Part shown: in pieces, positions 36,632 through 48,626 of the stretch
Position numbering within the stretch: position 1 is the stretch's first letter
Layout: each line of letters opens with the position of its first letter
Program-made: the position numbers and the translations under genes
The notes under the pieces: generated by a model
Databases searched by the model: none
Told to the model about the DNA's origin: nothing
The model's input: only the letters and a program-made list of their open reading frames with translations
NCBI RefSeq assembly: GCF_003576595.1
Contig: NZ_NQOU01000001.1
Span: 808,337 to 872,336 of the forward strand
From: Neopusillimonas maritima
GTDB taxonomy: Bacteria > Pseudomonadota > Gammaproteobacteria > Burkholderiales > Burkholderiaceae_B
Direction of reading: 5' to 3'
DNA length: 64,000 nucleotides

Positions 36632-36785
36632 TCCTTTAGCGCCCCCGACGCATGCACGGGCGGCAAGAAGTTGAATGAAAAGTGCATTTTAACGCGCCCG
36701 GCGACCCGGAAAAACGCAGCCCCACGCACCGCAAATGCAAGACGCCTGTGGTAGTATCAGGCGACTTCAAAACGCGACACTCCCC

Positions 36786-37829
36786 ATGGACTCAGTTACG
36801 CAAGCGGTACTAGGCGCAAGTGTTACCGGTGTGATGCTGGGGCGCTTTCACGGTCGCAAAGCCTATGTGGCCGGCGCCGTTCTGGCCACCCTGCCCGATC
36901 TAGACGTTATTATTGATTACGGCAATCCCATTGCCAACATGATCTATCACCGTGGGTTTTCCCATTCGGTGTTCGTCCTTACCCTGTTTTCCTTATTGCT
37001 GACCTGGCTGTTCCGGCTTTGGCCGCCGACGCATCAATACAGCAAAGGACGCCTGTTTTTAACCCTCTGGTTAATCTTCATGACGCACGTCCTTCTGGAT
37101 GCGCTCACCAGCTACGGCACCCAACTGTTCTGGCCCTGGCACCCCACCCCCACCAGTGTGTCCAGCATATTTATTATCGACCCTTTCTTTACGCTTCCCC
37201 TGCTGATTGCCGCTATTGCGGGCATTGCGGCGGGTGCACGCCCCGGCGTGCAGCGTTTCAATGGCTGGGTTCTGGGTTATTGCGCGCTTTATTTAGCAGC
37301 GTCGGTGATCGCCAAAAACGTCACTGAAGCCCGCGTGCGCGCCGAATTCGCAGAATCGAATATTGAAATCACCGACATGTTCTCAACACCCGCGCCCTTC
37401 AATATTTTGCTTTGGCGCGTGATGGCAAAAACCCCTGATGATCATTACTATGAAATGATCACGGGCTTTCTAGACGACAAGCCCGGGGAACGAATTCGTT
37501 TACCGCTGAATAGCAAGCCCGCTCACAAGTTAACGGACAATCCAATGCTTGATGGTTTACGCTGGTTCAGCGGCGATTGGTTGCGTTACGATGAAATCGA
37601 CAACCAACTTGTTGCCACTGATTTACGCATGGGCCTGGGCACCGGCTATTACTCCTTCCGGTTCAAAGTCGCGCAGCGCGACCCGGTTACCGGGCAATGG
37701 CGCTCCACCCCGCCGGAAAGGTGGCGTTCAGAGCGCGGCGTTGATGCACTGGGTAACGTGCTTACCCGCATCATTCATCAGAACCCTCCCTTGCCCCTTG
37801 CCATTTGGGAAACGCGCATGACGCGCTGA
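36786..37829 (+). CDS. YdjM-like membrane-bound metal-dependent hydrolase
   Basis: A 347-residue protein of the DUF457/YdjM family, with an N-terminal membrane domain and a hydrophilic C-terminal half. The conserved N-terminal core starts MDSVTQAVLGASVTGVMLG and contains LATLPDLDVIIDYG, YHRGFSHSVFV and MTHVLLDALTSYGTQLFWP, whose Asp and His residues are the putative metal ligands. E. coli YdjM is LexA-controlled, but no SOS box was seen here. The start at 36786 is chosen over an upstream ATG because family members begin at this residue. The last 52 bases overlap the convergent LysR gene. Confidence 0.88.
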   Translation: MDSVTQAVLGASVTGVMLGRFHGRKAYVAGAVLATLPDLDVIIDYGNPIANMIYHRGFSHSVFVLTLFSLLLTWLFRLWPPTHQYSKGRLFLTLWLIFMTHVLLDALTSYGTQLFWPWHPTPTSVSSIFIIDPFFTLPLLIAAIAGIAAGARPGVQRFNGWVLGYCALYLAASVIAKNVTEARVRAEFAESNIEITDMFSTPAPFNILLWRVMAKTPDDHYYEMITGFLDDKPGERIRLPLNSKPAHKLTDNPMLDGLRWFSGDWLRYDEIDNQLVATDLRMGLGTGYYSFRFKVAQRDPVTGQWRSTPPERWRSERGVDALGNVLTRIIHQNPPLPLAIWETRMTR

Positions 37830-38677
37830 AGCAAAGGATGTGCATCACTGCGACGGTGGCGAACGGCATAAATATCCTCATGCACGCCTATGCATTGCCC
37901 CAAACGGCGTAGCCGGGGTAATAGATCCCAATCCGACGCCCCCAACCTGCTTGTTGGAAAGACGCCCATTCCTTTCGCTCCGAACACCGCCATTAATGCA
38001 CTGTCTTCGAACTCGCCCACAACGTTGGGTTTAATGCCGCACGTTTCAAACCAACGATCCAGCGACAAACGCAACATAGAGTGCCGAGTGGGCAACAAGA
38101 CGGGAAGCGTGGCCAGAATCTCGGGGAATGCCTGTTGCGCCTCTTTACTAACCCATTTCCTGGGACCAAACCAATCAATCTCACTGGAAGCAATCCGGTC
38201 GGACAACAGGCGCAGATTAGGGTTCGGTGGCGCGGGCTGACTGGCCAACACAACATCAAGCCGATATTGCGCCAGCTCCGACAGCAACGCCTCCAACTCT
38301 CCCTCATGGCATAAAAGCTGCAGGCCACTTTCTTCCAAAACGGGTTGCAACAAGGTATGGGCAGCCAACTTCGACAACCCGTCAGAAAGGCCAACGGAAA
38401 ATCGCATCAACGGACGCGAAGCTATCTGTGCAACCTCATCTTGCAATACTTTACCCAACTGAAAGATTTCATCGGCACGAACCAGCGCACGCCGGCCGGC
38501 ATCGGTTAGAACCACACCGCGGCCATCCGGCTTGAGCAACTCATGCCCCAAATCCTTTTCCAGCGCCCGCACTTGCGCAGATACGGTCTGCACCGCTACT
38601 CCCAGGCGACTCGCCGCACGTGCAAAGCCCCCTTCCTTACCCACAATCCAAAAATAATAAAGATGGCGATAATTCAT
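37778..38677 (-). CDS. LysR-family regulator (NhaR-like)
   Basis: A 299-residue LysR regulator. The N-terminal winged helix starts MNYRHLYYFWIVGKEGGFARAASRLGVAVQTVSAQVR, strongly like NhaR, the sodium-responsive activator; the C-terminal part is a substrate-binding-like sensor domain (SVGLSDGLSKLAAHTLLQPVL, RLDVVLASQPAP). In NhaR the target is the antiporter gene nhaA. Here the divergent gene is a TerC-type membrane protein, which may be its target, or NhaR-like control could act elsewhere. Its end overlaps the hydrolase gene by 52 bases. Confidence 0.88.
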   Translation of the reverse strand: MNYRHLYYFWIVGKEGGFARAASRLGVAVQTVSAQVRALEKDLGHELLKPDGRGVVLTDAGRRALVRADEIFQLGKVLQDEVAQIASRPLMRFSVGLSDGLSKLAAHTLLQPVLEESGLQLLCHEGELEALLSELAQYRLDVVLASQPAPPNPNLRLLSDRIASSEIDWFGPRKWVSKEAQQAFPEILATLPVLLPTRHSMLRLSLDRWFETCGIKPNVVGEFEDSALMAVFGAKGMGVFPTSRLGASDWDLLPRLRRLGQCIGVHEDIYAVRHRRSDAHPLLQRVMRVSQMARGKGGF

Positions 38678-38705
38678 TTGAACGCCCTGTGCCGTCTAAG
38701 CCAAA

Positions 38706-38724
38706 ACTTCGTTTTTTTCGAAGT
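38706..38724. promoter_or_regulatory. Candidate LysR-type operator between lysR and terC
   Basis: ACTTCG (38706-38711) and CGAAGT (38719-38724) flank a run of seven T, forming a perfect 6-bp inverted repeat 29 bases upstream of the LysR start. The arrangement suits a LysR-type binding site for autoregulation and for the divergent terC. Confidence 0.45.
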
Positions 38725-38816
38725 ATTAGTCAGTTTATTCAGTATTTATACATATTGAAAGAAAAGGCATGATAGCGTCGTTTCAACATTCACCCTTTTT
38801 ACGGAATCGCATTGCC

Positions 38817-39797
38817 ATGAATGGATTTGATTTTCTGTTTCAAACCGTCGCGGGCGTGCCGGCGTGGACCTGGGTCGTTTTTTTTGTTGTTGTGATCTCG
38901 TTACTGGCATTCGACCTGGGCGTACTTCATAAAGAAGAACGCGAAATCGGCATCCGTGAGAGCCTTTTTCTTTCCGCCGGCTACATTCTGGCTGCCGTCA
39001 TTTTTGGCGGCTGGGTCTGGTGGTTCTTCGGACCTGAAGACGGCATGCATTACTACACCGGGTTTCTTATTGAAAAATCCCTGTCGATGGACAATATTTT
39101 TGTCATTGCGCTGATCTTTACGTTTTTCGCCATTCCACGCAAATATCAACACCGGGTTCTGTTCTGGGGCATCATGGGCGTGATCGTGCTGCGTGCCATC
39201 ATGATTGGTGTGGGCGCAGGCCTGATTCACGAATTCGAATGGATACTCTACATATTCGGCGCTTTCCTGGTGTTTACCGGCGTCAAAATGTGGTTTATGG
39301 TCGACCACACCCCCGACATTTCCAAAAACCTGTTGCTGAAAATTCTAAAGCGCTACATCCCGTTCACTGACGGTTTGCGCGGCAATGCTTTCTGGGTGAA
39401 AGAGTCCGACCCACAATCGGGGCGCGTAATGCGAAAAGCCACCCCCCTGTTTTTGGCGCTCATTCTGGTGGAATTCACCGACGTGGTATTTGCAGTTGAC
39501 TCCATTCCAGCCATTTTCGCCATCACGACCGATCCATTTATTGTTTACACCAGCAATATTTTCGCTATTCTGGGGCTGCGCGCACTGTATTTCGCCCTGG
39601 CCGCAATCATTCACCGTTTCCATTATCTGAAATACGCACTGGCCTTGATCCTTGTGTTCATTGGCGGCAAGGTGTTCCTGGTCAATATAATCGGCAAGGT
39701 TCCTCCCTCCATCTCGTTGGGCGTCACGATCACGCTTCTTGCCGGCGGGGTTATCTTGTCGTTGTATAAAACGGCGGGGACTAAAACCCAGGCATAA
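38817..39797 (+). CDS. TerC-family membrane protein
   Basis: A 326-residue integral membrane protein with about nine hydrophobic segments. TerC/Alx proteins are linked to manganese export, pH response and, in some bacteria, metalation of secreted proteins. Family motifs are AFDLGVLHKEEREIGIRESL, FFGPEDGMHYYTGFLIEKSLSMDNIFVIALIF and ILVEFTDVVFAVDSIPAIFAITTDPFIVYTSNIFAILGLRALYF, containing the conserved acidic residues. I chose the ATG at 38817, the usual family start; an upstream ATG at 38769 adds 16 residues. No yybP-ykoY manganese riboswitch was recognised in the 139-base leader. Confidence 0.92.
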   Translation: MNGFDFLFQTVAGVPAWTWVVFFVVVISLLAFDLGVLHKEEREIGIRESLFLSAGYILAAVIFGGWVWWFFGPEDGMHYYTGFLIEKSLSMDNIFVIALIFTFFAIPRKYQHRVLFWGIMGVIVLRAIMIGVGAGLIHEFEWILYIFGAFLVFTGVKMWFMVDHTPDISKNLLLKILKRYIPFTDGLRGNAFWVKESDPQSGRVMRKATPLFLALILVEFTDVVFAVDSIPAIFAITTDPFIVYTSNIFAILGLRALYFALAAIIHRFHYLKYALALILVFIGGKVFLVNIIGKVPPSISLGVTITLLAGGVILSLYKTAGTKTQA

Positions 39798-39803
39798 GAA
39801 TGC

Positions 39804-39840
39804 GGTACGATCTCGCTGATCATCATCACGAGAACGTACC
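39804..39840 (+). promoter_or_regulatory. Imperfect inverted repeat abutting the RND adaptor start codon
   Basis: GGTACGATCTCG (39804-39815) and CGAGAACGTACC (39829-39840) pair at 10 of 12 positions across a 13-base gap. It fills nearly all of the space between the terC stop and the adaptor ATG, so it covers the ribosome-binding region. It may be a repressor operator or an RNA hairpin that limits translation. Confidence 0.55.
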
Positions 39841-40899
39841 ATGCGCGCATTTGTTGCTTGCTTTGCCACGGCTACAGCGTTGTTGCTTACCGGATGCAAC
39901 AACGCCGCCACTTCCACGTCTCAATCGCAAGCGCCCATCGTCAAGCCATGGGTATTGGAAACAGACAACCAGTCTTCAATAAGCTTGTCCGGCATCGTAC
40001 GTGCGCGTACCGAGTCTCCCCTGGCTTTTCAAATAGCCGGCCGGATTGCCAAGCGTTTCGTTGATGCAGGGCAAACCGTTACCCAGGGACAACCCTTGCT
40101 CGAGCTGGACCCTCGTGACTTTCAGGAACGCGTTCAAGGTGCCCAGGCCGATTTAGCCGCCGCAAACGCCGCCTTGCGCATTGCGCAGGCAGATCTGACT
40201 CGACACCAGGAATTATTGCGGCACAACGCAGTGAGCAAACAAGCGGCGGAACAGGCCGAATTAATGTTGCGCGAAGCACGTGCACGACGCGAAGTGGCGC
40301 AAACACAACTGAGCCAGGCAAAGAATGCGCTGGATTACGCGCAACTTAATGCCCCTGCCAACGGCGTATTAATTGAGGTTAGCGCTGACGAAGGGCAAGT
40401 CGTGGCGTCGGGCTATACCGTGGCCCGCTTGGCCCACGCCGGCAAACGAGAAGTCGAAGTATATTTCCCCGAAAGCACGACACCGCCTGAAAAGGGCGCG
40501 CTGCTGCTTAACGAACAATCGCTTGCGTTAACGCTGCGGGAAACCGCCGGCGCGGTCGACCCGCAAAGCCGCACACTGCGTGCGCGCTACGCCCTCGTTG
40601 AACAAGATGGCAATAATTCTGACCTGCAGTTAGGCAGTGTGGTGCGTACCCGGTTTAACGCCCCCCCATCAAATGAAACGTCTTTTGTCGTGCCGCTGGG
40701 CGCAATCAACGAGCGGGGTAACGGCCCCCAGGTGTGGCGGATTCAAGAGGGAAAAGTCAACCCTGTACCCGTCTCCATTATCAGCATTGAAACGGAAACC
40801 GCTCATGTGAACGGACCGCTTGAAAGCGGCGAACAGATTGTTGCAGTCGGCACACACCTGTTGCAAAACGACATGTCCGTTCGGGTGCAAGACGAATGA
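39841..40899 (+). CDS. RND efflux periplasmic adaptor lipoprotein
   Basis: A 352-residue membrane-fusion protein. The signal peptide ends in the lipobox LLLTGC, so it should be lipid-anchored to the inner membrane. It then shows VRARTESPLAFQIAGRIAKRFVDAGQTVTQGQPLLELDPRDF (lipoyl half), an alanine/glutamine-rich helical hairpin, LNAPANGVLIEVSADEGQVV (second half) and the barrel domain. The type resembles adaptors of pumps with 'AcrB-like, divergent' permeases of ~1030 residues, such as the next gene. It overlaps the permease by four bases (ATGA). Confidence 0.92.
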   Translation: MRAFVACFATATALLLTGCNNAATSTSQSQAPIVKPWVLETDNQSSISLSGIVRARTESPLAFQIAGRIAKRFVDAGQTVTQGQPLLELDPRDFQERVQGAQADLAAANAALRIAQADLTRHQELLRHNAVSKQAAEQAELMLREARARREVAQTQLSQAKNALDYAQLNAPANGVLIEVSADEGQVVASGYTVARLAHAGKREVEVYFPESTTPPEKGALLLNEQSLALTLRETAGAVDPQSRTLRARYALVEQDGNNSDLQLGSVVRTRFNAPPSNETSFVVPLGAINERGNGPQVWRIQEGKVNPVPVSIISIETETAHVNGPLESGEQIVAVGTHLLQNDMSVRVQDE

Positions 40900-43800
40900 G
40901 CTTTCCAAACCTGTCGGCGCTGGCGGTTAAGGAACGCGCCATTACCCTGTTTTTTCTTATTCTGGCGGTTATTGCGGGCATCTATGCTTTTTTGTCGTTA
41001 GGCCGCGCCGAAGACCCTCCCTTCACGGTCCGCGCGCTCGTGGTCTCGGCCAACTGGCCCGGAGCCACGCCGCAGGAAATGCAAGAACAGGTGGCGGACC
41101 GACTGGAAAAACGCATTCAGGAAGTGCCCCACCTGCACGAAATTGAAACCACCGTGCGTCCCGGGCAGGCCAACCTAATGGTGGAGTTTCAAGACAACAC
41201 ACCCAAAGAAATCGTACCGGACCTGTTTTACGAAGTGCGCAAACGCATGCAGGAAGAGGCCGGCAGCCTGCCTGAAGGGGTCATCGGCCCAATTGTGAAT
41301 GATGATTTTGCCGACGTTTACTTCAACCTGATTGCCCTGACCGCGCCCGGCCTGCCCATGCGCCTGATCACACGAGACGCGGAAAACATTCGCGACCGTA
41401 TCCACCAAGTGCCGGGCGTGCGTAAAGCTTTGATACTGGGCGAACGCAGCGAACGTGTGTTCATCGAGTTCGATCCGATACGCCTGAATAACCTGGGGCT
41501 CTCACCCACGGCAATTTTCGAAGCCATCGACGCGCATAACCGCCTGGTGCCGGCCGGGCGCATTGAAACCGAGGGGCCGCGTCTGTACTTGCGCCTGGAC
41601 AGCGACCTGTCTGAGCCGGAAGAACTCGCGAACGTTCCATTACGCATTGGCGATCGCCTGATTCGTCTGGCCGATATCGCTACGGTTCACCGGGGCTACG
41701 AAGACCCGCCCAGTTACCTGGTTCGCTCAAAAGGGGAAGACGCCGTTTTAATTGGCGTTGTCATGGAAAGCGGCGTGAACGGCCTGGAACTGGGTGAACG
41801 GCTGGAAAATTTTATTGAGGAAGAACGTACGCGTTTACCGCTTGGCATGTCGTTGAATGTGTTAACCAATCAAGCCGACGCGATTGCCGGCGCAGTGAAT
41901 CTGTTTCAAATCAAATTTTTTATCGCTGTGGCTGTCGTTGTTGCCGTCAGCATACTCGCCATCGGCTTACGTGCAGGCCTTATCGTAGGCATTGCCGTGC
42001 CCGTTACGCTGGGCATTACCTTTTTGATCATGCTTATGATGCGTATCAATCTGGATCGCGTGACCTTGGGCGCCCTGATTCTGGCTCTGGGTTTATTGGT
42101 GGACGACGCGATCATCTCGGTTGAGATGATGCTGGTAAAAATGGAGGAAGGATGGGACCGCGTTAAAGCTGCGGCGCATGCCTGGACAGTAACCGCTGCG
42201 CCTATGCTGTTCGGCACGCTAGTCACCGTTGCCGGCTTCATCCCCATTGGTTTTGCGCAGTCGGCCGTAGGCGAATACACGGGCAACATTTTCTGGGTGC
42301 TGGGCATTTCACTCATCGTATCGTGGCTGGTTGCCGTCATTTTCGTGCCGTACCTGGGCGTTAAGATGCTGCCGGCCCAACACAAGACCCATACGCAGGG
42401 CCAAGACCCGGCACAATCAAACCATCAGCCCTATCAGTCTTCACGATATCAACGCCTGCGTTCACTCATTTCCTGGTGTGTCGTCCACCGCAAAACCGTT
42501 GTGTTTATCACGATTGGGCTACTGCTTTTGGCTATTGCAGGCATGGCCACCGTAGTGCAGAAACAATTCTTTCCCACGTCCGACCGACCCGAGGTGCTGA
42601 TTAGCGTTTACATGCCGCAAGGTACCAGTATCGAAGCCACGGATCGCACCGTTCAAAAACTTGAGGAATTGTTAACGCCCATGGAGGAAATTGAATCGTT
42701 GTCGGCTTACATTGGTGCAGGCGCCCCGCGATTCTTCATTTCCGCCAGCCCCGAAATGCCCGACCCAGGGTTTGCTAAATTGATTGCTGTAGCAACGGAC
42801 GCACAAGCACGCGACCGAATCATCGAGCAGGTGAACCAGGCTATTGATCGTGGCCGCTTCCCCGAAGCTCGTGTACGGGCAACAGGCTTGTTGTATGGCC
42901 CACCTGTTACGTGGCCGGTTGCCTTTCGTATCTTGGGGCCTAATCCAGATACGCTGCGCAGCATTGCCTACGATATCCGCAACGTAATGGAACAAAACCC
43001 GCATGTTCGCGGCGCCCACCTCGACTGGAATGAACGTGCCCCCATTCTGCATCTGAACATGGATAAAGAGCGTCTGCGCCTACTGGGCATGACGCCGCTC
43101 GACGTTTCGCGCCAGCTTCAATTCCAACTGGAAGGCGTCACCGTCACCCAGCTTCGTCAGGACATTCGCAGTGTGAACGTCGTCGCGCGCATGGCGGGAT
43201 TGAACCACGACGCACGCAGCAATGCCGACATACTGAGTCGCATTGAAATTGTCACGCCAGAAGGGCGCAAACTCCCCTTTTCACAATTGGGGGAAATAGA
43301 AACCCGCTTTGAAGAGCCCGTTATTAAAAGACACAATCGCGAACGCGTGCTGATGGTGCAGGGCGATGTTGAAGGCGCGCAACCCAATGATGTTAGCCTG
43401 GCCTTGTGGGACAACCTTAAAACGTTACGCAGCAACCTGCCCCCGGGATATCATCTGGAGTTGGCCGGTTCGGTTGAGGAATCGACCAAAGGCGAGTCCT
43501 CCATTCAAAAAATGCAACCCATTATGTTTGCAGTGATGTTGATTTTCATCATGCTGCAAATGCGTTCTTTCTCCGGCACATTTATGGTCATCGCCACCGC
43601 CCCTCTTGGGCTTATTGGCGCGGTACTGGCTTTACTGATGTTCCAGCAGCCTTTTGGCTTTGTCGCCCTGCTTGGGCTCACCGGTCTGGCAGGCATTCTC
43701 ATGCGCAACACACTGATTCTTACGCAACAAGTGACCGACAACTTCAAAGCCGGCATGAGTCAATTTGAAGGCGTTGTAGAGGCGGCCGTGCAACGTGCAC

Positions 43801-43985
43801 GTCCGGTCATACTCACCGCGTTGGCCGCGGTATTTGCATTTGTGCCGTTAACCCTGGACACCTTCTGGGGGCCACTTGCCTTCGTACTCATCGGAGGGGT
43901 AGCCGTAGGCACCGCTATTACTCTATTATTTGTACCAGCCCTTTACGGGCTTTGGTTCCGAATCAAGCCACAGGAAAGCGAATGA
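40896..43985 (+). CDS. RND efflux permease
   Basis: A 1029-residue RND permease of the AcrB/MdtF superfamily, only distantly like the HAE1 pump at 24781. It starts MSFPNLSALAVKERAITLFFLIL and carries the proton-relay motif GLLVDDAIISVEMMLVKMEEGWDR in helix 4, ending in PALYGLWFRIK. The large periplasmic loops are of normal size. The gene begins within the adaptor stop (ATGA) and ends within the start of the dehydrogenase (ATGA), so three proteins are translationally linked. No outer-membrane factor is adjacent. Its substrate may be a sugar-acid or an aldehyde related to the next gene, but that is only inference. Confidence 0.93.
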   Translation: MSFPNLSALAVKERAITLFFLILAVIAGIYAFLSLGRAEDPPFTVRALVVSANWPGATPQEMQEQVADRLEKRIQEVPHLHEIETTVRPGQANLMVEFQDNTPKEIVPDLFYEVRKRMQEEAGSLPEGVIGPIVNDDFADVYFNLIALTAPGLPMRLITRDAENIRDRIHQVPGVRKALILGERSERVFIEFDPIRLNNLGLSPTAIFEAIDAHNRLVPAGRIETEGPRLYLRLDSDLSEPEELANVPLRIGDRLIRLADIATVHRGYEDPPSYLVRSKGEDAVLIGVVMESGVNGLELGERLENFIEEERTRLPLGMSLNVLTNQADAIAGAVNLFQIKFFIAVAVVVAVSILAIGLRAGLIVGIAVPVTLGITFLIMLMMRINLDRVTLGALILALGLLVDDAIISVEMMLVKMEEGWDRVKAAAHAWTVTAAPMLFGTLVTVAGFIPIGFAQSAVGEYTGNIFWVLGISLIVSWLVAVIFVPYLGVKMLPAQHKTHTQGQDPAQSNHQPYQSSRYQRLRSLISWCVVHRKTVVFITIGLLLLAIAGMATVVQKQFFPTSDRPEVLISVYMPQGTSIEATDRTVQKLEELLTPMEEIESLSAYIGAGAPRFFISASPEMPDPGFAKLIAVATDAQARDRIIEQVNQAIDRGRFPEARVRATGLLYGPPVTWPVAFRILGPNPDTLRSIAYDIRNVMEQNPHVRGAHLDWNERAPILHLNMDKERLRLLGMTPLDVSRQLQFQLEGVTVTQLRQDIRSVNVVARMAGLNHDARSNADILSRIEIVTPEGRKLPFSQLGEIETRFEEPVIKRHNRERVLMVQGDVEGAQPNDVSLALWDNLKTLRSNLPPGYHLELAGSVEESTKGESSIQKMQPIMFAVMLIFIMLQMRSFSGTFMVIATAPLGLIGAVLALLMFQQPFGFVALLGLTGLAGILMRNTLILTQQVTDNFKAGMSQFEGVVEAAVQRARPVILTALAAVFAFVPLTLDTFWGPLAFVLIGGVAVGTAITLLFVPALYGLWFRIKPQESE

Positions 43986-46345
43986 ACTTAACCAGACGCC
44001 CGTTACTTCTTACCTTTACCGCATTTGTGCTGTTACTGGCCGGGTTAGCGTTATCAGCCGGCGGGCTCTGGCTTTTCATACTGGGCGACACCCCACTTTA
44101 TATCGCTTTTGGCTTGGCATTAATGCTCGTCGCCGTTCTGCTGTTCAAGCAAAAAGCCCTGGCTTTTTTCTGGTACGCCTTACTGCTGGGCGGCTTGCTA
44201 TGGTGGTCTATTCACGAACAAGGGTTCGATTGGTGGCCACTGGCGGCAAGGGTCGGGCTGTTTTTCGTGGTGGGCTTATGGCTGCTGGTGCCATGGGTTA
44301 ACCGGTCGCTGCAAGGCGCACCTGGGCTGAACAAAGGCTTGCTGTGGCTGGCGTTGCTGGGCACACTGGTTGTGTCCGCCGCCAGCTGGATCAACGACCC
44401 GCATCGCATCGATGGCACACTTGCCATGCGCACCACACCCGACACCTATCGCGGACCCAACGTCCCCAAAGAAGAGTGGCAGGCCTATGGCCGTACCGGC
44501 TTTGGTCAACGTTATTCACCGCTGGAACAAATTACACCGGAGAACATCGGGCAGTTGGAAGTGGCCTGGCACTATAAAACAGGCGATATGCGTGGGCAAC
44601 CAGGCGACCCGGTTGAAACCACCTTCCAGGTCACGCCCCTGAACGTGGGCAACCGTTTGTTCCTGTGCACCCCACACCAGAACGTGATTGCACTGGATGC
44701 CACCTCGGGTGAAGAGCTCTGGCGCTTCGACCCGGAAATCGAAGGCGATATGGCCTTGCAACACCTTACCTGCCGCGGTGTTTCATATCAGGCCGAAGTA
44801 GATAAAACGGTGCTGGAAGGGTTTACCGACAACTGCAGTTCACGTTTATTCATGCCTACTTCCGATGGCCGCATTATTGCGCTGAACCCCGAAAACGGCG
44901 AGGTCTGCTCTGCCTTCGGACAAGGTAAAGGTGAAATCGATCTGTGGAAAAACATGCCCAACAAACGCGTGGGCGGCTATTACTCAACTTCGCCGGCAGT
45001 AGTCACTGACGATCTGCTAATTGTGGGTGGCACCGTACTCGACAATGTCTCCACCAGCGAACCCTCAGGCGTTATTCGTGCTTTCAATGTCAATACCGGC
45101 GAACTGGTCTGGAATTGGGATGCCGCCAACCCCGAACAAACCGAACCGATAGCACCAGGCGAAACCTACACGCCGAATTCGCCCAATAGCTGGAGCATCA
45201 GCAGTGTAGACGAAGAGTTTGGGCTAATTTACGTTCCCATGGGCAACCAGCCACCCGACCAGTGGGGTGGTAACCGCAGCCCTGAAGTCGAGAAATATTC
45301 CACCTCGATTGTCGCACTGGAACTGGATACTGGCCGGGTTCGCTGGCACTACCAAACCGTTCATCACGACTTGTGGGATTACGATGTACCCTCGCAACCC
45401 AGCTTGCTGGACCTGACGGTTAACGGCGAAACCGTGCCCGCACTGGTTCAACCCACCAAACAAGGTGAACTGTTTGTGCTGAACCGGCTTACCGGCGAAC
45501 CTATTTTGCCGATTAAAGAAGAACCCGCCCCCCAAGGCGCCGTACCAGGCGACTTCACCGCCCCCACCCAACCTGTTTCAAAACTGTCGTTCAACCCACC
45601 AGAACTTACGGGTGCCGACATGTGGGGGGCCACCCTGTTCGACCAACTGGCCTGCCGCATCCAGTTCCATCGTTATCGTTATGATGGCCGGTTCACCCCG
45701 CCGTCGCTGGAAGGGTCTCTTATTTACCCGGGCAATTTTGGCGTATTCAATTGGGGCAGCATCGCGGTTGACCCTCAACGTCAGGTTGCTTTCACCACAC
45801 CAACGTACCTTGCCTTTGTATCGCAACTTATTCCCCGTAACGACGATACCTCATTGGTGGTTAACAAAGCACCACCAGAGCACGGCTTACCCGCACTGAA
45901 CGAAAACTTTGGCGCGCCCTACGCGGTTAAACTCTTTCCCTTCTTGTCGTTGCTGGGCATACCGTGCCAGGCCCCGCCATGGGGTTATGTGGCCGGCGCC
46001 GACCTGGTCACCGGCGAGATTGTCTGGAAACACAAAAACGGCACCGTTATCGACAGTTCACCGTTGCCGCTTCCCTTCAAAATGGGTGTTCCCAATCTTG
46101 GAGGCCCGCTCATGACAGCGGGCGGCGTCGCTTTCCTTTCGGGCACTATCGATAATTACGTACGCGGATACGATGTTTCTACCGGCAAACAACTGTGGGA
46201 GCAGCGCTTGCCCGCAGGTGGTCAGGCTACACCCATGAGTTTCATGGGTAAAAACGGCAAGCAGTATCTGGTGGTCGTTGCAGGCGGCCATGGTTCACTG
46301 GACACCACCGCAGGTGATGATGTCATTGCATATACGTTGCCCTAA
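43982..46345 (+). CDS. PQQ-dependent membrane-bound dehydrogenase (glucose/quinate type)
   Basis: A 787-residue quinoprotein. The first ~135 residues form five membrane helices, as in membrane-bound glucose dehydrogenase; the rest is an eight-bladed propeller with PQQ contacts such as LTCRGVSYQ, LFMPTSDGRIIALNPENG, VHHDLWDYDVPSQPSLLDL (catalytic aspartate region), PTKQGELFVLNRLTG (PQQ-binding lysine) and LPAGGQATPMSF near the end. It oxidises glucose or quinate-type substrates in the periplasm and reduces ubiquinone. Glucose (gcd) and quinate (quiA) dehydrogenases share this layout and I cannot separate them by eye. It is joined to the RND permease by ATGA. PQQ synthesis genes are not in the window. 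Confidence 0.9.
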   Translation: MNLTRRPLLLTFTAFVLLLAGLALSAGGLWLFILGDTPLYIAFGLALMLVAVLLFKQKALAFFWYALLLGGLLWWSIHEQGFDWWPLAARVGLFFVVGLWLLVPWVNRSLQGAPGLNKGLLWLALLGTLVVSAASWINDPHRIDGTLAMRTTPDTYRGPNVPKEEWQAYGRTGFGQRYSPLEQITPENIGQLEVAWHYKTGDMRGQPGDPVETTFQVTPLNVGNRLFLCTPHQNVIALDATSGEELWRFDPEIEGDMALQHLTCRGVSYQAEVDKTVLEGFTDNCSSRLFMPTSDGRIIALNPENGEVCSAFGQGKGEIDLWKNMPNKRVGGYYSTSPAVVTDDLLIVGGTVLDNVSTSEPSGVIRAFNVNTGELVWNWDAANPEQTEPIAPGETYTPNSPNSWSISSVDEEFGLIYVPMGNQPPDQWGGNRSPEVEKYSTSIVALELDTGRVRWHYQTVHHDLWDYDVPSQPSLLDLTVNGETVPALVQPTKQGELFVLNRLTGEPILPIKEEPAPQGAVPGDFTAPTQPVSKLSFNPPELTGADMWGATLFDQLACRIQFHRYRYDGRFTPPSLEGSLIYPGNFGVFNWGSIAVDPQRQVAFTTPTYLAFVSQLIPRNDDTSLVVNKAPPEHGLPALNENFGAPYAVKLFPFLSLLGIPCQAPPWGYVAGADLVTGEIVWKHKNGTVIDSSPLPLPFKMGVPNLGGPLMTAGGVAFLSGTIDNYVRGYDVSTGKQLWEQRLPAGGQATPMSFMGKNGKQYLVVVAGGHGSLDTTAGDDVIAYTLP

Positions 46346-46364
46346 TTCTTAAAGGAGTCGGACG

Positions 46365-46910
46365 ATGTCAGACCACCCCATTCAACAACTTGTTGACGAC
46401 CATCGCTATATTCTGATGGTTGTAAATCATTTAAACAGCCTTGCGCCTGGTATTGCCGGCTCCGAACCCGTTAATGCATCCGTCCTGCGCCAAGCCGTTC
46501 AATTCATGCGGGAATTTGCCGACCACTGCCATCACGGCAAAGAGGAAGACCTGCTCTTTCCCGCACTGGTCGACGCCAATGTCCCGGAAAGCGGGTGCCC
46601 CATTGGTGGTTTAAAAGGCGAACACGTGAAAGGACGAAAACTGGTCGGCCAATTGGAAGAGGGGATTAACTTATTAGGCGAAAATGAAACACAAGCCCGT
46701 CAAACCATTTGCGAAGCCATTCGGGGCATTGCCCTTCTTTACCCCGACCACATCTGGAAAGAAGACGCCATGGTGTTCCCCATGGCGGAACGCTTATTAA
46801 GTGATGCACAAGTCAATGCGCTGAAAGTGGGCTTTGCAGAGGTCGAGCGAATCCACGCCCACCACCATCAGCACCATATGCAATTTGCCCTGAGCCTGCA
46901 AACAGCCTAA
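46365..46910 (+). CDS. Haemerythrin-domain protein
   Basis: A 181-residue cytoplasmic protein with a haemerythrin fold that may bind a di-iron centre. The metal ligands fit the HHE pattern: DDHRYI near residue 13, HCHHGKEEDLLFP around residue 55, and H in LYPDHIWKEDAMVFP, with a late His-rich tail (HAHHHQHH). Relatives in the YtfE/HHE group handle oxygen, nitric oxide or iron. It follows the dehydrogenase by 19 bases behind an AAAGGAGT site and is closed by a terminator, so it seems to belong to the same operon. Confidence 0.88.
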   Translation: MSDHPIQQLVDDHRYILMVVNHLNSLAPGIAGSEPVNASVLRQAVQFMREFADHCHHGKEEDLLFPALVDANVPESGCPIGGLKGEHVKGRKLVGQLEEGINLLGENETQARQTICEAIRGIALLYPDHIWKEDAMVFPMAERLLSDAQVNALKVGFAEVERIHAHHHQHHMQFALSLQTA

Positions 46911-46937
46911 TCCGCAATAACGGTTAAAATACACCCC

Positions 46938-46965
46938 GCCCATGCATGCAACACATGGGCTTTTT
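46938..46965 (+). terminator. Rho-independent terminator after the haemerythrin gene
   Basis: GCCCATG (46938-46944) pairs perfectly with CATGGGC (46954-46960) across a nine-base loop, followed by TTTTT at 46961-46965. It closes the adaptor-permease-dehydrogenase-haemerythrin unit and separates it from the phosphate transporter. Confidence 0.85.
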
Positions 46966-47060
46966 CATGTGCGAAATATGACAAAAAAAAGAAATCTCAT
47001 AATTTGCACTGTTTATTTAAACGCTGTTTTCCTTAACCCAGAACAAGCCCTAATTTACCC

Positions 47061-48626
47061 ATGAAGCTCCAAAACGTGAACGACCTGCAACAAGGTACCA
47101 AACGCAGCCGACGCGAGTTCTTCCGCTACGGACTGGCACTACTGTTTGTTGCCGGCATCATGATTTACTCTTCTCTAGGCTTGGGTATCACCGGGCAACA
47201 AGGCATCTTGCTGGTGGTTGCCGCCATGATTGGTGGTTACATGGCCATGAATATTGGTGCCAACGATGTCGCCAACAATGTCGGTCCTGCCGTGGGGTCT
47301 CAATCTATCTCCATGGGGTGGGCCATTGTCATTGCGGCCATATTCGAAATGGCCGGCGCCATCATCGCGGGGGGCGACGTCATTTCCACGGTACGCGGTG
47401 ACATTATCGACATGTCGTATGTACCCGACAGCGACCATTTCATCGCACTCATGACGGCGGCGCTACTTGCCGGCGCACTCTGGCTGAACCTTGCGACCGC
47501 GTTAGGTGCCCCGGTCTCCACCACCCACTCTATTGTGGGTGCCGTTCTGGGCGCAGGCCTGGCTGCCGGTGGTTTCGCCGCCGCCAACTGGCCCGTTATG
47601 GGAAAAATCGCTGCCAGTTGGGTCATCTCACCCGTCATGGGTGGGCTCATTGCCGCCGGCTTCCTGCTATGGATTAAACGCGCTATTACCTATAAAACCG
47701 ACATGGTGGAAGCCGCCCGCCGCACGGTACCAATCCTTATTGGTGTGATGGCATTTTCGTTTACCACTTACCTGATGCTGAAAGGGTTAAGCAAGGTATG
47801 GAAGGTTGATTTCTACACCGCAGCGGCCATTGGCCTTGTTATGGGCCTGGTGTTATGGCTACTCATGCGTAAGTTACTTACACGCCGGGCCAGCCAGCTG
47901 AACAACACCAAGAAGGCCATCAATTCGCTGTTTATTGTTCCCCTTATTTTTGCAGCCGCGTTGTTAAGTTTCGCCCACGGCGCCAACGATGTTGCCAATG
48001 CTATCGGCCCGTTGGCCGCCATTGCCGACACTGTTCTACGCGGCGGTGTATCCGACCAGGCCGGTATTCCATTATGGGTATTGTTAATCGGCGCATTCGG
48101 TATTGCGCTGGGTCTGGCCTTATACGGCCCCAAACTGATTCGTACCGTAGGCGGCGAAATTACCGACCTCGACCAAATGCGCGCGTTTTCAGTGGCAATG
48201 GCTGCCGCCATTACCGTTATTATCGCTTCGCAGTTAGGCTTGCCGGTCAGCTCCACCCATATTGCCATTGGTGGCATTTTTGGCGTGGGCTTCCTGCGTG
48301 AACGTTTGAAATCTAACTACTCACGCATGCTGGAAGAAATAAAGCACCACCACTCCGGTGCCGACAAGGAAATTGTTGAAGCCTTCCTCGACCGCTTTGC
48401 GGCCGCCGACGTCGCCACCAAACAAACCATGCTGAAAGAGCTGAAAGCCCATGAAGCCGACATTGAACTGAGCAAAAAAGAATATAAGAAGATTCGAAAG
48501 GTTTACAAAAACGAACTGGTGAAGCGTACTGCCGTTACCAAGATCGTAGCTGCCTGGATTATTACCGTGCCCGCATCGGCACTACTTGCCGCTATTATTT
48601 ACTGGTTGATGGCGTCGTTGTTGTAA
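47061..48626 (+). CDS. pitA: Inorganic phosphate transporter, Pit family
   Basis: A 521-residue symporter that takes up phosphate with divalent cations. Two internally similar halves carry the Pit signature: GANDVANNVGPAVGSQSI with APVSTTHSIVGAVLGAG in the first and HGANDVANAIGPLAAI with LGLPVSSTHIAIGGIFGVG in the second. About ten membrane helices are visible. A hydrophilic helical insertion (about residues 415-490), rich in K, E and H, precedes the last helix, as in the larger Pit subgroup. No PhoU-like partner is adjacent. It converges with the DTW gene after seven bases. Confidence 0.93.
   Translation: MKLQNVNDLQQGTKRSRREFFRYGLALLFVAGIMIYSSLGLGITGQQGILLVVAAMIGGYMAMNIGANDVANNVGPAVGSQSISMGWAIVIAAIFEMAGAIIAGGDVISTVRGDIIDMSYVPDSDHFIALMTAALLAGALWLNLATALGAPVSTTHSIVGAVLGAGLAAGGFAAANWPVMGKIAASWVISPVMGGLIAAGFLLWIKRAITYKTDMVEAARRTVPILIGVMAFSFTTYLMLKGLSKVWKVDFYTAAAIGLVMGLVLWLLMRKLLTRRASQLNNTKKAINSLFIVPLIFAAALLSFAHGANDVANAIGPLAAIADTVLRGGVSDQAGIPLWVLLIGAFGIALGLALYGPKLIRTVGGEITDLDQMRAFSVAMAAAITVIIASQLGLPVSSTHIAIGGIFGVGFLRERLKSNYSRMLEEIKHHHSGADKEIVEAFLDRFAAADVATKQTMLKELKAHEADIELSKKEYKKIRKVYKNELVKRTAVTKIVAAWIITVPASALLAAIIYWLMASLL

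What the first reader, a model, noticed from the sequence alone, without database searches (positions are those of the whole stretch)
39841..46965. RND efflux pump translationally joined to a PQQ dehydrogenase and a haemerythrin
Adaptor, permease and PQQ-dependent dehydrogenase overlap by ATGA pairs, the haemerythrin follows 19 bases later and a terminator closes the set. I know of no described unit that combines these. One model: the dehydrogenase oxidises a periplasmic aldehyde, alcohol or sugar whose acid or reactive product is then pumped out, while the haemerythrin handles oxygen or iron. The permease is of the distant AcrB group and has no outer-membrane gene adjacent.
Basis: partly seen in the sequence, partly recalled or inferred. 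Interest (0 to 1): 0.68.

Follow-up and report, generated by a model that had tools for sequence, protein, structure and literature searches.

The report
Efflux operon with added sugar oxidase
A bacterial drug-pump gene pair is followed, in one tight run, by a sugar-oxidising enzyme gene and a small iron-protein gene; the run is real, but it was found in only two closely related species, and nothing yet shows that the parts work as one machine.

Summary
Adaptor, permease and PQQ dehydrogenase overlap by ATGA, a haemerythrin-domain gene follows after 19 bases, and a hairpin plus five T closes the set. The permease belongs to the MexK/TriC branch, where lacking an outer-membrane gene is ordinary (MexJK borrows OprM or OpmH). 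The dehydrogenase is Gcd-type, 49% identical to E. coli Gcd. The genome has no PqqC match and no PqqE over cut-off, but an intact PQQ importer (PqqU), so the cofactor is probably scavenged. The haemerythrin-domain protein keeps its iron ligands and is rare. The seven genes compared between the two species that share the order are under purifying selection (dN/dS 0.03-0.11).

The order is lineage-limited: 2 of 5 genus genomes. The other three have the permease but no such dehydrogenase. None of the other dehydrogenase loci examined (80 named, 41 unnamed, several cut by contig ends) has a pump directly beside it. Most likely it arose by accretion downstream of an older pump pair, giving co-transcription of separately working parts. 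The parts are ordinary; the combination is a local variant not found in the papers searched.

The parts
38769..39797 (+). TerC/Alx family membrane protein; same strand, 43 bases upstream of the adaptor; possible first gene of the run (an internal ATG would give 326 aa)
   Evidence: TIGR03718 404.8 bits, cut-off 246.4; same neighbour in G019, not in G055/G082
39804..39840 (+). Inverted repeat GGTACG-A-TCTCG / CGAGA-A-CGTACC directly before the adaptor start codon, covering its ribosome-binding region; possible operator or RNA hairpin
   Evidence: fold of 39795-39860 -22.5 kcal/mol, z -2.62, 2 of 200 shuffles as good; TerC-adaptor gap identical 43 of 43 bases in G019
39841..40899 (+). RND periplasmic adaptor, 352 aa (lipoprotein-like start, judged by eye)
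   Evidence: TIGR01730 200.6 bits, cut-off 94.9; best solved relatives the adaptor chain of 6vej 224 bits and MexJ 124 bits
40896..43985 (+). RND permease of the MexK/TriC branch, 1029 aa
   Evidence: PF00873 506.5 bits; MexK 849 bits, 6vej permease (TriC, name recalled) 766, best MexB 187, best AcrB 173; no NCBIfam RND subfamily reaches its cut-off
43982..46345 (+). Membrane-bound PQQ-dependent dehydrogenase, Gcd type, 787 aa
   Evidence: TIGR03074 1081.9 bits; 48.9% identical to E. coli Gcd over 775 columns
46365..46910 (+). Haemerythrin HHE-domain protein, 181 aa, His-rich tail
   Evidence: PF01814 68.4 bits; H13, H56, H57, E60, H87, H129, E133 invariant in the 9 aligned sequences
46938..46965 (+). 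Terminator-like hairpin (7 pairs, 9-base loop) and T5
   Evidence: sequence, fold; same sequence in G019

Best explanation
This is a lineage-limited operon made by accretion. An older RND adaptor-permease pair of the MexK/TriC branch, shared by the genus, carries two downstream genes in two of its species: a Gcd-type PQQ dehydrogenase and an HHE di-iron protein. They are read on one message (inferred), with translational coupling at the two ATGA joints (inferred). Each part probably does its family's job. PQQ is scavenged through PqqU (inferred from genes), and the dehydrogenase oxidises an aldose or similar substrate on the outer face of the inner membrane and passes electrons to ubiquinone (family knowledge, recalled). 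That respiration feeds the proton gradient on which the pump runs. The pump exports amphiphilic compounds through one of the outer-membrane channels encoded elsewhere. The HHE protein acts in the cytosol on oxygen, nitric oxide or iron. The shared benefit, if any, is joint expression under one signal, not hand-over of a substrate.
For: Joints, frames and terminator-like hairpin. Same order in G019, with dN/dS adaptor 0.066, PQQ dehydrogenase 0.056, HHE 0.080 and permease 0.070. Permease in 5 of 5 genomes of the genus, PQQ dehydrogenase in 2 of 5, HHE relative at E 1e-10 in the same 2 of 5. Adaptor-permease ATGA joint already present in G055 and G082. MexK best match; 18 OEP half-matches, which pair up into nine outer-membrane channel proteins, all outside the window. 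No PqqC match in any of the 5 genus genomes, no PqqE over cut-off in G000, intact PqqU at 54% and 53% in G000 and G019. Six of ten Gcd positions looked at are identical, including the supposed catalytic D466 and PQQ-contacting K493 (roles recalled); HHE ligands kept. No + strand promoter-like site between adaptor start and HHE.
Against: No transcript data, so one message is inferred; the promoter scan finds 5 sites against 5.7 in shuffles and decides nothing. Gain of the two genes is not proved over loss in congeners: a tree with the dehydrogenase inside its own family is not rejected (p-AU 0.112), its third-position G+C (61.4%) equals the permease's (61.5%), and a pqqU in two frames in G055 could be a relic of an earlier PQQ enzyme, although a PQQ sugar-dehydrogenase-like ORF lies beside it. 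Four Gcd positions differ (R201 K, T424 P, N607 T, E742 K). The strict conservation of the joints between two species could also mean real coupling.
Confidence: 0.62

Rival explanations
1. One reading: the dehydrogenase makes an acid or reactive product in the periplasm and the pump exports it, with the HHE protein handling oxygen or iron.
For: Translational overlap and conservation in G019; RND pumps can load from the periplasm (recalled).
Against: No other PQQ dehydrogenase locus looked at has a pump directly beside it: 0 of 80 named loci (one has a pump 6.5 kb away) and 0 of 41 unnamed loci besides the window and G019; at least one of the 41 (L024) is the same place as a named one (L099), and several are cut by contig ends. 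Three congeners keep the permease without the enzyme. Small sugar acids do not need an RND pump (recalled).
Confidence: 0.1
2. Energy coupling: the dehydrogenase is kept beside the pump because its electrons to ubiquinone recharge the proton gradient the pump uses under toxic stress, when carbon assimilation is slow; the HHE protein buffers oxygen or NO for the same condition.
For: No Edd over cut-off in G000 or G019 (2 of 9 genomes searched have it), so the phosphorylated route for gluconate is not evident and the enzyme may serve energy alone; Gcd feeds ubiquinone (recalled); a distant HHE relative sits next to norR and NO reductase in Desulfosarcina.
Against: No experiment; Edd-like proteins below cut-off could dehydrate gluconate; the Desulfosarcina HHE relative is only 28.5% identical, and other HHE relatives have quite different neighbours.
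Confidence: 0.18
3. Only neighbours: the dehydrogenase and HHE genes are transcribed separately, or merely by read-through, and adjacency has no function.
For: Order seen in two close species only; the promoter scan decides nothing.
Against: Two 4-base overlaps leave no intergenic space between adaptor, permease and dehydrogenase (a promoter could still lie inside a gene); no + strand promoter-like site inside them.
Confidence: 0.1

Closest known systems
MexJK of Pseudomonas aeruginosa (RND pump that borrows OprM or OpmH)
   Same: Two-gene adaptor-permease unit without its own outer-membrane gene; permease best match among solved structures is MexK, 849 bits; OprM/OpmH use seen in passages of PMC9323910
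   Different: No TetR-family gene among the eight proteins of 36735-48626 that were tested; two extra genes downstream; the adaptor matches the 6vej (Tri) adaptor chain better than MexJ (224 vs 124 bits)
Gcd, membrane-bound quinoprotein glucose dehydrogenase of E. coli
   Same: TIGR03074; 48.9% identity; equivalents of H262, W404, D466, K493, D730, H775 identical (residue roles recalled); PQQ probably not made but importable through PqqU
   Different: R201, T424, N607 and E742 positions are K, P, T and K; in E. coli the gene stands between cueO and hpt, here inside an RND operon
HHE-domain proteins beside NO reductase (Desulfosarcina ovata plasmid) and RIC/YtfE
   Same: PF01814 family and ligand pattern
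   Different: 28.5% identity to the Desulfosarcina protein; RIC model only 26 of the 204.7 bits needed

Membership tests
MexK/TriC-branch RND (HAE1) permease | Sequence closest to MexK/TriC, not to AcrB/MexB or CusA | tested here: met
   849 and 766 bits against 187 for MexB and 173 for AcrB; TIGR00914 CusA/CzcA 289 of 701 bits needed
MexJK operon proper | TetR-type repressor (MexL) gene next to the pair (adjacency recalled) | tested here: not met
   Neighbours are TerC, a LysR-family gene (NhaR model 181 of 219 bits), YdjM and a PHO4/Pit-type transporter; hence not filed as MexJK itself
MexJK operon proper | No outer-membrane factor in the operon | tested here: met
   Families of the eight proteins of 36735-48626; the OEP matches lie elsewhere
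Membrane-bound PQQ dehydrogenase (TIGR03074) | Whole-protein score over curated cut-off, membrane anchor plus propeller | tested here: met
   1081.9 of 832.65 bits, residues 12-787
Gcd (glucose dehydrogenase) | Oxidises D-glucose with PQQ, electrons to ubiquinone | not testable with these tools
   Six of ten positions looked at identical to E. coli Gcd, four differ; substrate unknown
Haemerythrin HHE domain (PF01814) | Conserved His/Glu di-iron ligands | tested here: met
   H13, H56/H57, E60, H87, H129, E133 invariant in 9 sequences; 68.4 bits
RIC/YtfE iron-sulfur repair protein | Score over the TIGR03652 cut-off | tested here: not met
   26.1 of 204.7 bits

The most novel reading that the evidence does not exclude
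A true periplasmic oxidise-and-export or energise-and-export unit: co-translation places a scavenged-PQQ dehydrogenase beside an RND pump so that substrate oxidation directly powers or feeds efflux, with an HHE protein as oxygen or NO partner.
Probability: 0.12. Interest if true: 0.6.

Novelty: new variant of a known kind. Interest (0 to 1): 0.27.

Why it matters
If one message is confirmed, it would be a natural case of a respiratory quinoprotein put under the control of an efflux promoter, and a simple test of whether extra periplasmic oxidation helps RND efflux. It also adds one more likely PQQ scavenger (PqqU plus a Gcd-type enzyme, no PQQ synthesis genes found), a way of life already described as widespread (PMC12124388). 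Taken alone, it is a local gene arrangement in one small clade.

Tried and rejected
Acquisition of the dehydrogenase from outside its family: in a quick tree of 80 of 109 collected rows the window pair falls outside the Burkholderiales cluster on a long branch, with support of 85-91 (not starred) on the forks that separate them. With 42 of the 109 rows, the AU test does not reject it inside its family (p 0.112) or inside the Burkholderiales set (p 0.392). Left open.

Loss in congeners shown by decay of pqqU: pqqU lies in two frames in G055, but an ORF that looks like a soluble PQQ sugar dehydrogenase (by eye, no family search) sits beside it, so pqqU may have served that enzyme. Left open. PqqU is also no strict mark of the enzyme: of eight other family genomes with the dehydrogenase that I searched, five have PqqU and three (G018, G002, G043) do not.

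A conserved neighbour that would reveal the substrate: of 93 loci given to my ORF caller, the dehydrogenase gene was kept in 75. The most frequent neighbour cluster (a UvrD-like helicase by eye) occurs at 13 of the 75, the next at 10, and none points to a pathway that I could name. Quinate or shikimate use was not tested further.

Rfam search of 37700-47200: no match up to E 1. HHE fold from the single sequence: mean pLDDT 49, too poor for a fold search, so none was made. dN/dS of TerC: not obtained (searches stopped at a stop codon, because the longer start is not open in G019).

Full report
WHAT IS THERE. Adaptor 39841-40899, permease 40896-43985 and PQQ dehydrogenase 43982-46345 overlap by ATGA. 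The haemerythrin-domain gene 46365-46910 follows after 19 bases with a good ribosome-binding site (AAAGGAG). A hairpin with T5 ends the run at 46965; its 9-base loop is beyond the limit of the terminator scan, but the fold shows it (21 of 200 shuffles fold as well). Upstream, a TerC/Alx gene on the same strand ends 43 bases before the adaptor. That gap holds an 11-pair inverted repeat with one A-A mismatch (39804-39840) that ends at the adaptor start codon (fold -22.5 kcal/mol, z -2.62). The gap is identical in a second species, 43 of 43 bases, within an alignment that is 94.7% identical over 14.4 kb.

FAMILIES. The adaptor is TIGR01730 and the permease ACR_tran; no NCBIfam RND permease subfamily reaches its cut-off (best 426 of 1250 bits). 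Among solved structures the permease is nearest to MexK (849 bits) and to the 6vej permease (766; TriC by recall), while MexB reaches 187 and AcrB 173. The adaptor is nearest to the 6vej adaptor chain (224) and MexJ (124). MexJK works with OprM or OpmH (PMC9323910, passages seen), so the missing outer-membrane gene is ordinary; the same paper reports no effect of MexJK on susceptibility in wild-type cells. The genome has 18 OEP half-matches that pair into nine channel proteins, all outside the window. The dehydrogenase passes TIGR03074 (1082 bits, cut-off 833) and is 48.9% identical to E. coli Gcd. Of ten Gcd positions looked at, H262, W404, D466, K493, D730 and H775 are identical; R201, T424, N607 and E742 are K, P, T and K (the roles of these residues are recalled). 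The HHE protein passes PF01814, fails RIC/YtfE (26 of 204.7 bits), and keeps H13, H56, H57, E60, H87, H129 and E133, invariant in the nine aligned sequences.

COFACTOR. In a sample of 121 genomes of the family, 20 have PqqC over the cut-off; none of the five genus members has any match. G000 has no PqqE over the cut-off (best 55.7 of 381 bits). G000 and G019 have an intact PqqU at 54% and 53% identity to the E. coli PQQ importer. G082 has none at E 1e-20, G104 only a 25% relative, and G055 has it in two frames. Of eight other family genomes with the dehydrogenase, five have PqqU and three do not. PqqU as PQQ importer: PMC12124388 (passages, and section 11). G000 has one match to the dehydrogenase at E 0.001. 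Soluble quinoproteins of other folds were not searched.

HOW WIDESPREAD. In the 121 family genomes, the dehydrogenase query matches 48 genomes at E 0.001, which includes weak matches to other quinoproteins. The permease, at E 1e-100 and with at most six candidates scored per genome, matches 42 genomes at 47 places. Comparing the two tables by eye, the two genes lie side by side only in G000 and G019. In the genus, 2 of 5 genomes have the dehydrogenase, while 5 of 5 have the permease (in G104 only a half at a contig end, followed by transporter-like ORFs). In 399 genomes of the order, 13 genomes have 16 dehydrogenase places at E 1e-120, with at most two candidates scored per genome. Of 43 unnamed dehydrogenase loci with about 1.5 kb flanks (L009-L038, L185-L197; some cut by contig ends), a pump lies beside the gene in 2, the window and G019. 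Eleven of these places were also read in stretches of 18-19 kb and hold no pump. Of 80 named loci with up to 10 kb flanks (some cut by contig ends), none has a pump next to the gene; one (L095, Azospirillum) has one 6.5 kb away. One named locus (L099) is the same place as an unnamed one (L024). Pumps were sought with the window permease and seven other RND permeases of the same genome. The HHE protein is rarer: 3 of 121 in the family and 7 of 398 in the phylum at E 1e-10, own genome included, the best outside the genus 36% identical.

HISTORY. In congeners G055 and G082 the adaptor-permease pair, with its ATGA joint, lies near TerC but in the opposite direction, with other genes between them, and without dehydrogenase or HHE. 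So the pump pair is older and the tail is the variable part. Gain or loss of the tail is not settled, and third-position G+C does not set the dehydrogenase apart (61.4% against 61.5% for the permease; HHE 54.4%). Between G000 and G019, dN/dS is 0.066 (adaptor), 0.056 (dehydrogenase), 0.080 (HHE), 0.028 (Pit-type transporter), 0.099 (LysR) and 0.107 (YdjM) and 0.070 (permease), so these seven proteins are under constraint. TerC was not obtained.

MECHANISM. Shown: gene order, joints, families, residues, genome content. Inferred: one message, translational coupling, PQQ import, electron flow to ubiquinone, pump partner in trans. The product-export model needs the pump to carry the dehydrogenase's product, and nothing found speaks for that. 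Joint expression of separately working parts is the simplest reading (0.62). Energy coupling is the better of the functional rivals (0.18): no Edd is found over the cut-off in G000, which leaves energy as a plausible use of the enzyme, though Edd-like proteins below the cut-off are present.

PRINT. Searches for the combination found nothing relevant: 5 terms, 0 papers; 'PQQ-dependent', 'hemerythrin', 'efflux', 1 review on methanotrophs (listing only); 'quinoprotein glucose dehydrogenase', 'efflux pump', 'operon', 'co-transcribed', 1 paper on a Serratia regulator (listing only); 'MexJK' with 'glucose dehydrogenase', 0. The library holds open-licence papers only, so this is no proof of absence from print.

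VERDICT. The parts belong to known kinds, and the combination is a conserved but local variant. Interest 0.27.

Noticed in passing
window 39804-39840: Near-perfect inverted repeat (GGTACG-A-TCTCG ... CGAGA-A-CGTACC) ending exactly at the adaptor start codon; CGGTACGAT also occurs upstream of the adaptor in G055 and G082. Possible operator or RNA hairpin over the ribosome-binding site.
   Followed up: partly
window 46854-46877: The HHE protein ends in a His-rich tail (HAHHHQHH) that the other sequences of the 9-row alignment lack, apart from the copy in G019.
   Followed up: no
L208 5491-8743 (G055): A pqqU gene in two frames lies next to an ORF that looks like a soluble PQQ sugar dehydrogenase (by eye, no family search).
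   Followed up: partly
L174 1-4552 (Desulfosarcina ovata plasmid): A distant HHE relative sits directly after a nitric-oxide reductase gene and its regulator norR, which hints at a nitric-oxide role for this HHE group.
   Followed up: no
L140, L141 (G055, G082): In these congeners the pump pair lies beside flavin mono-oxygenase-, luciferase- and isochorismatase-like genes (judged by eye from sequence), a different setting from the window.
   Followed up: no
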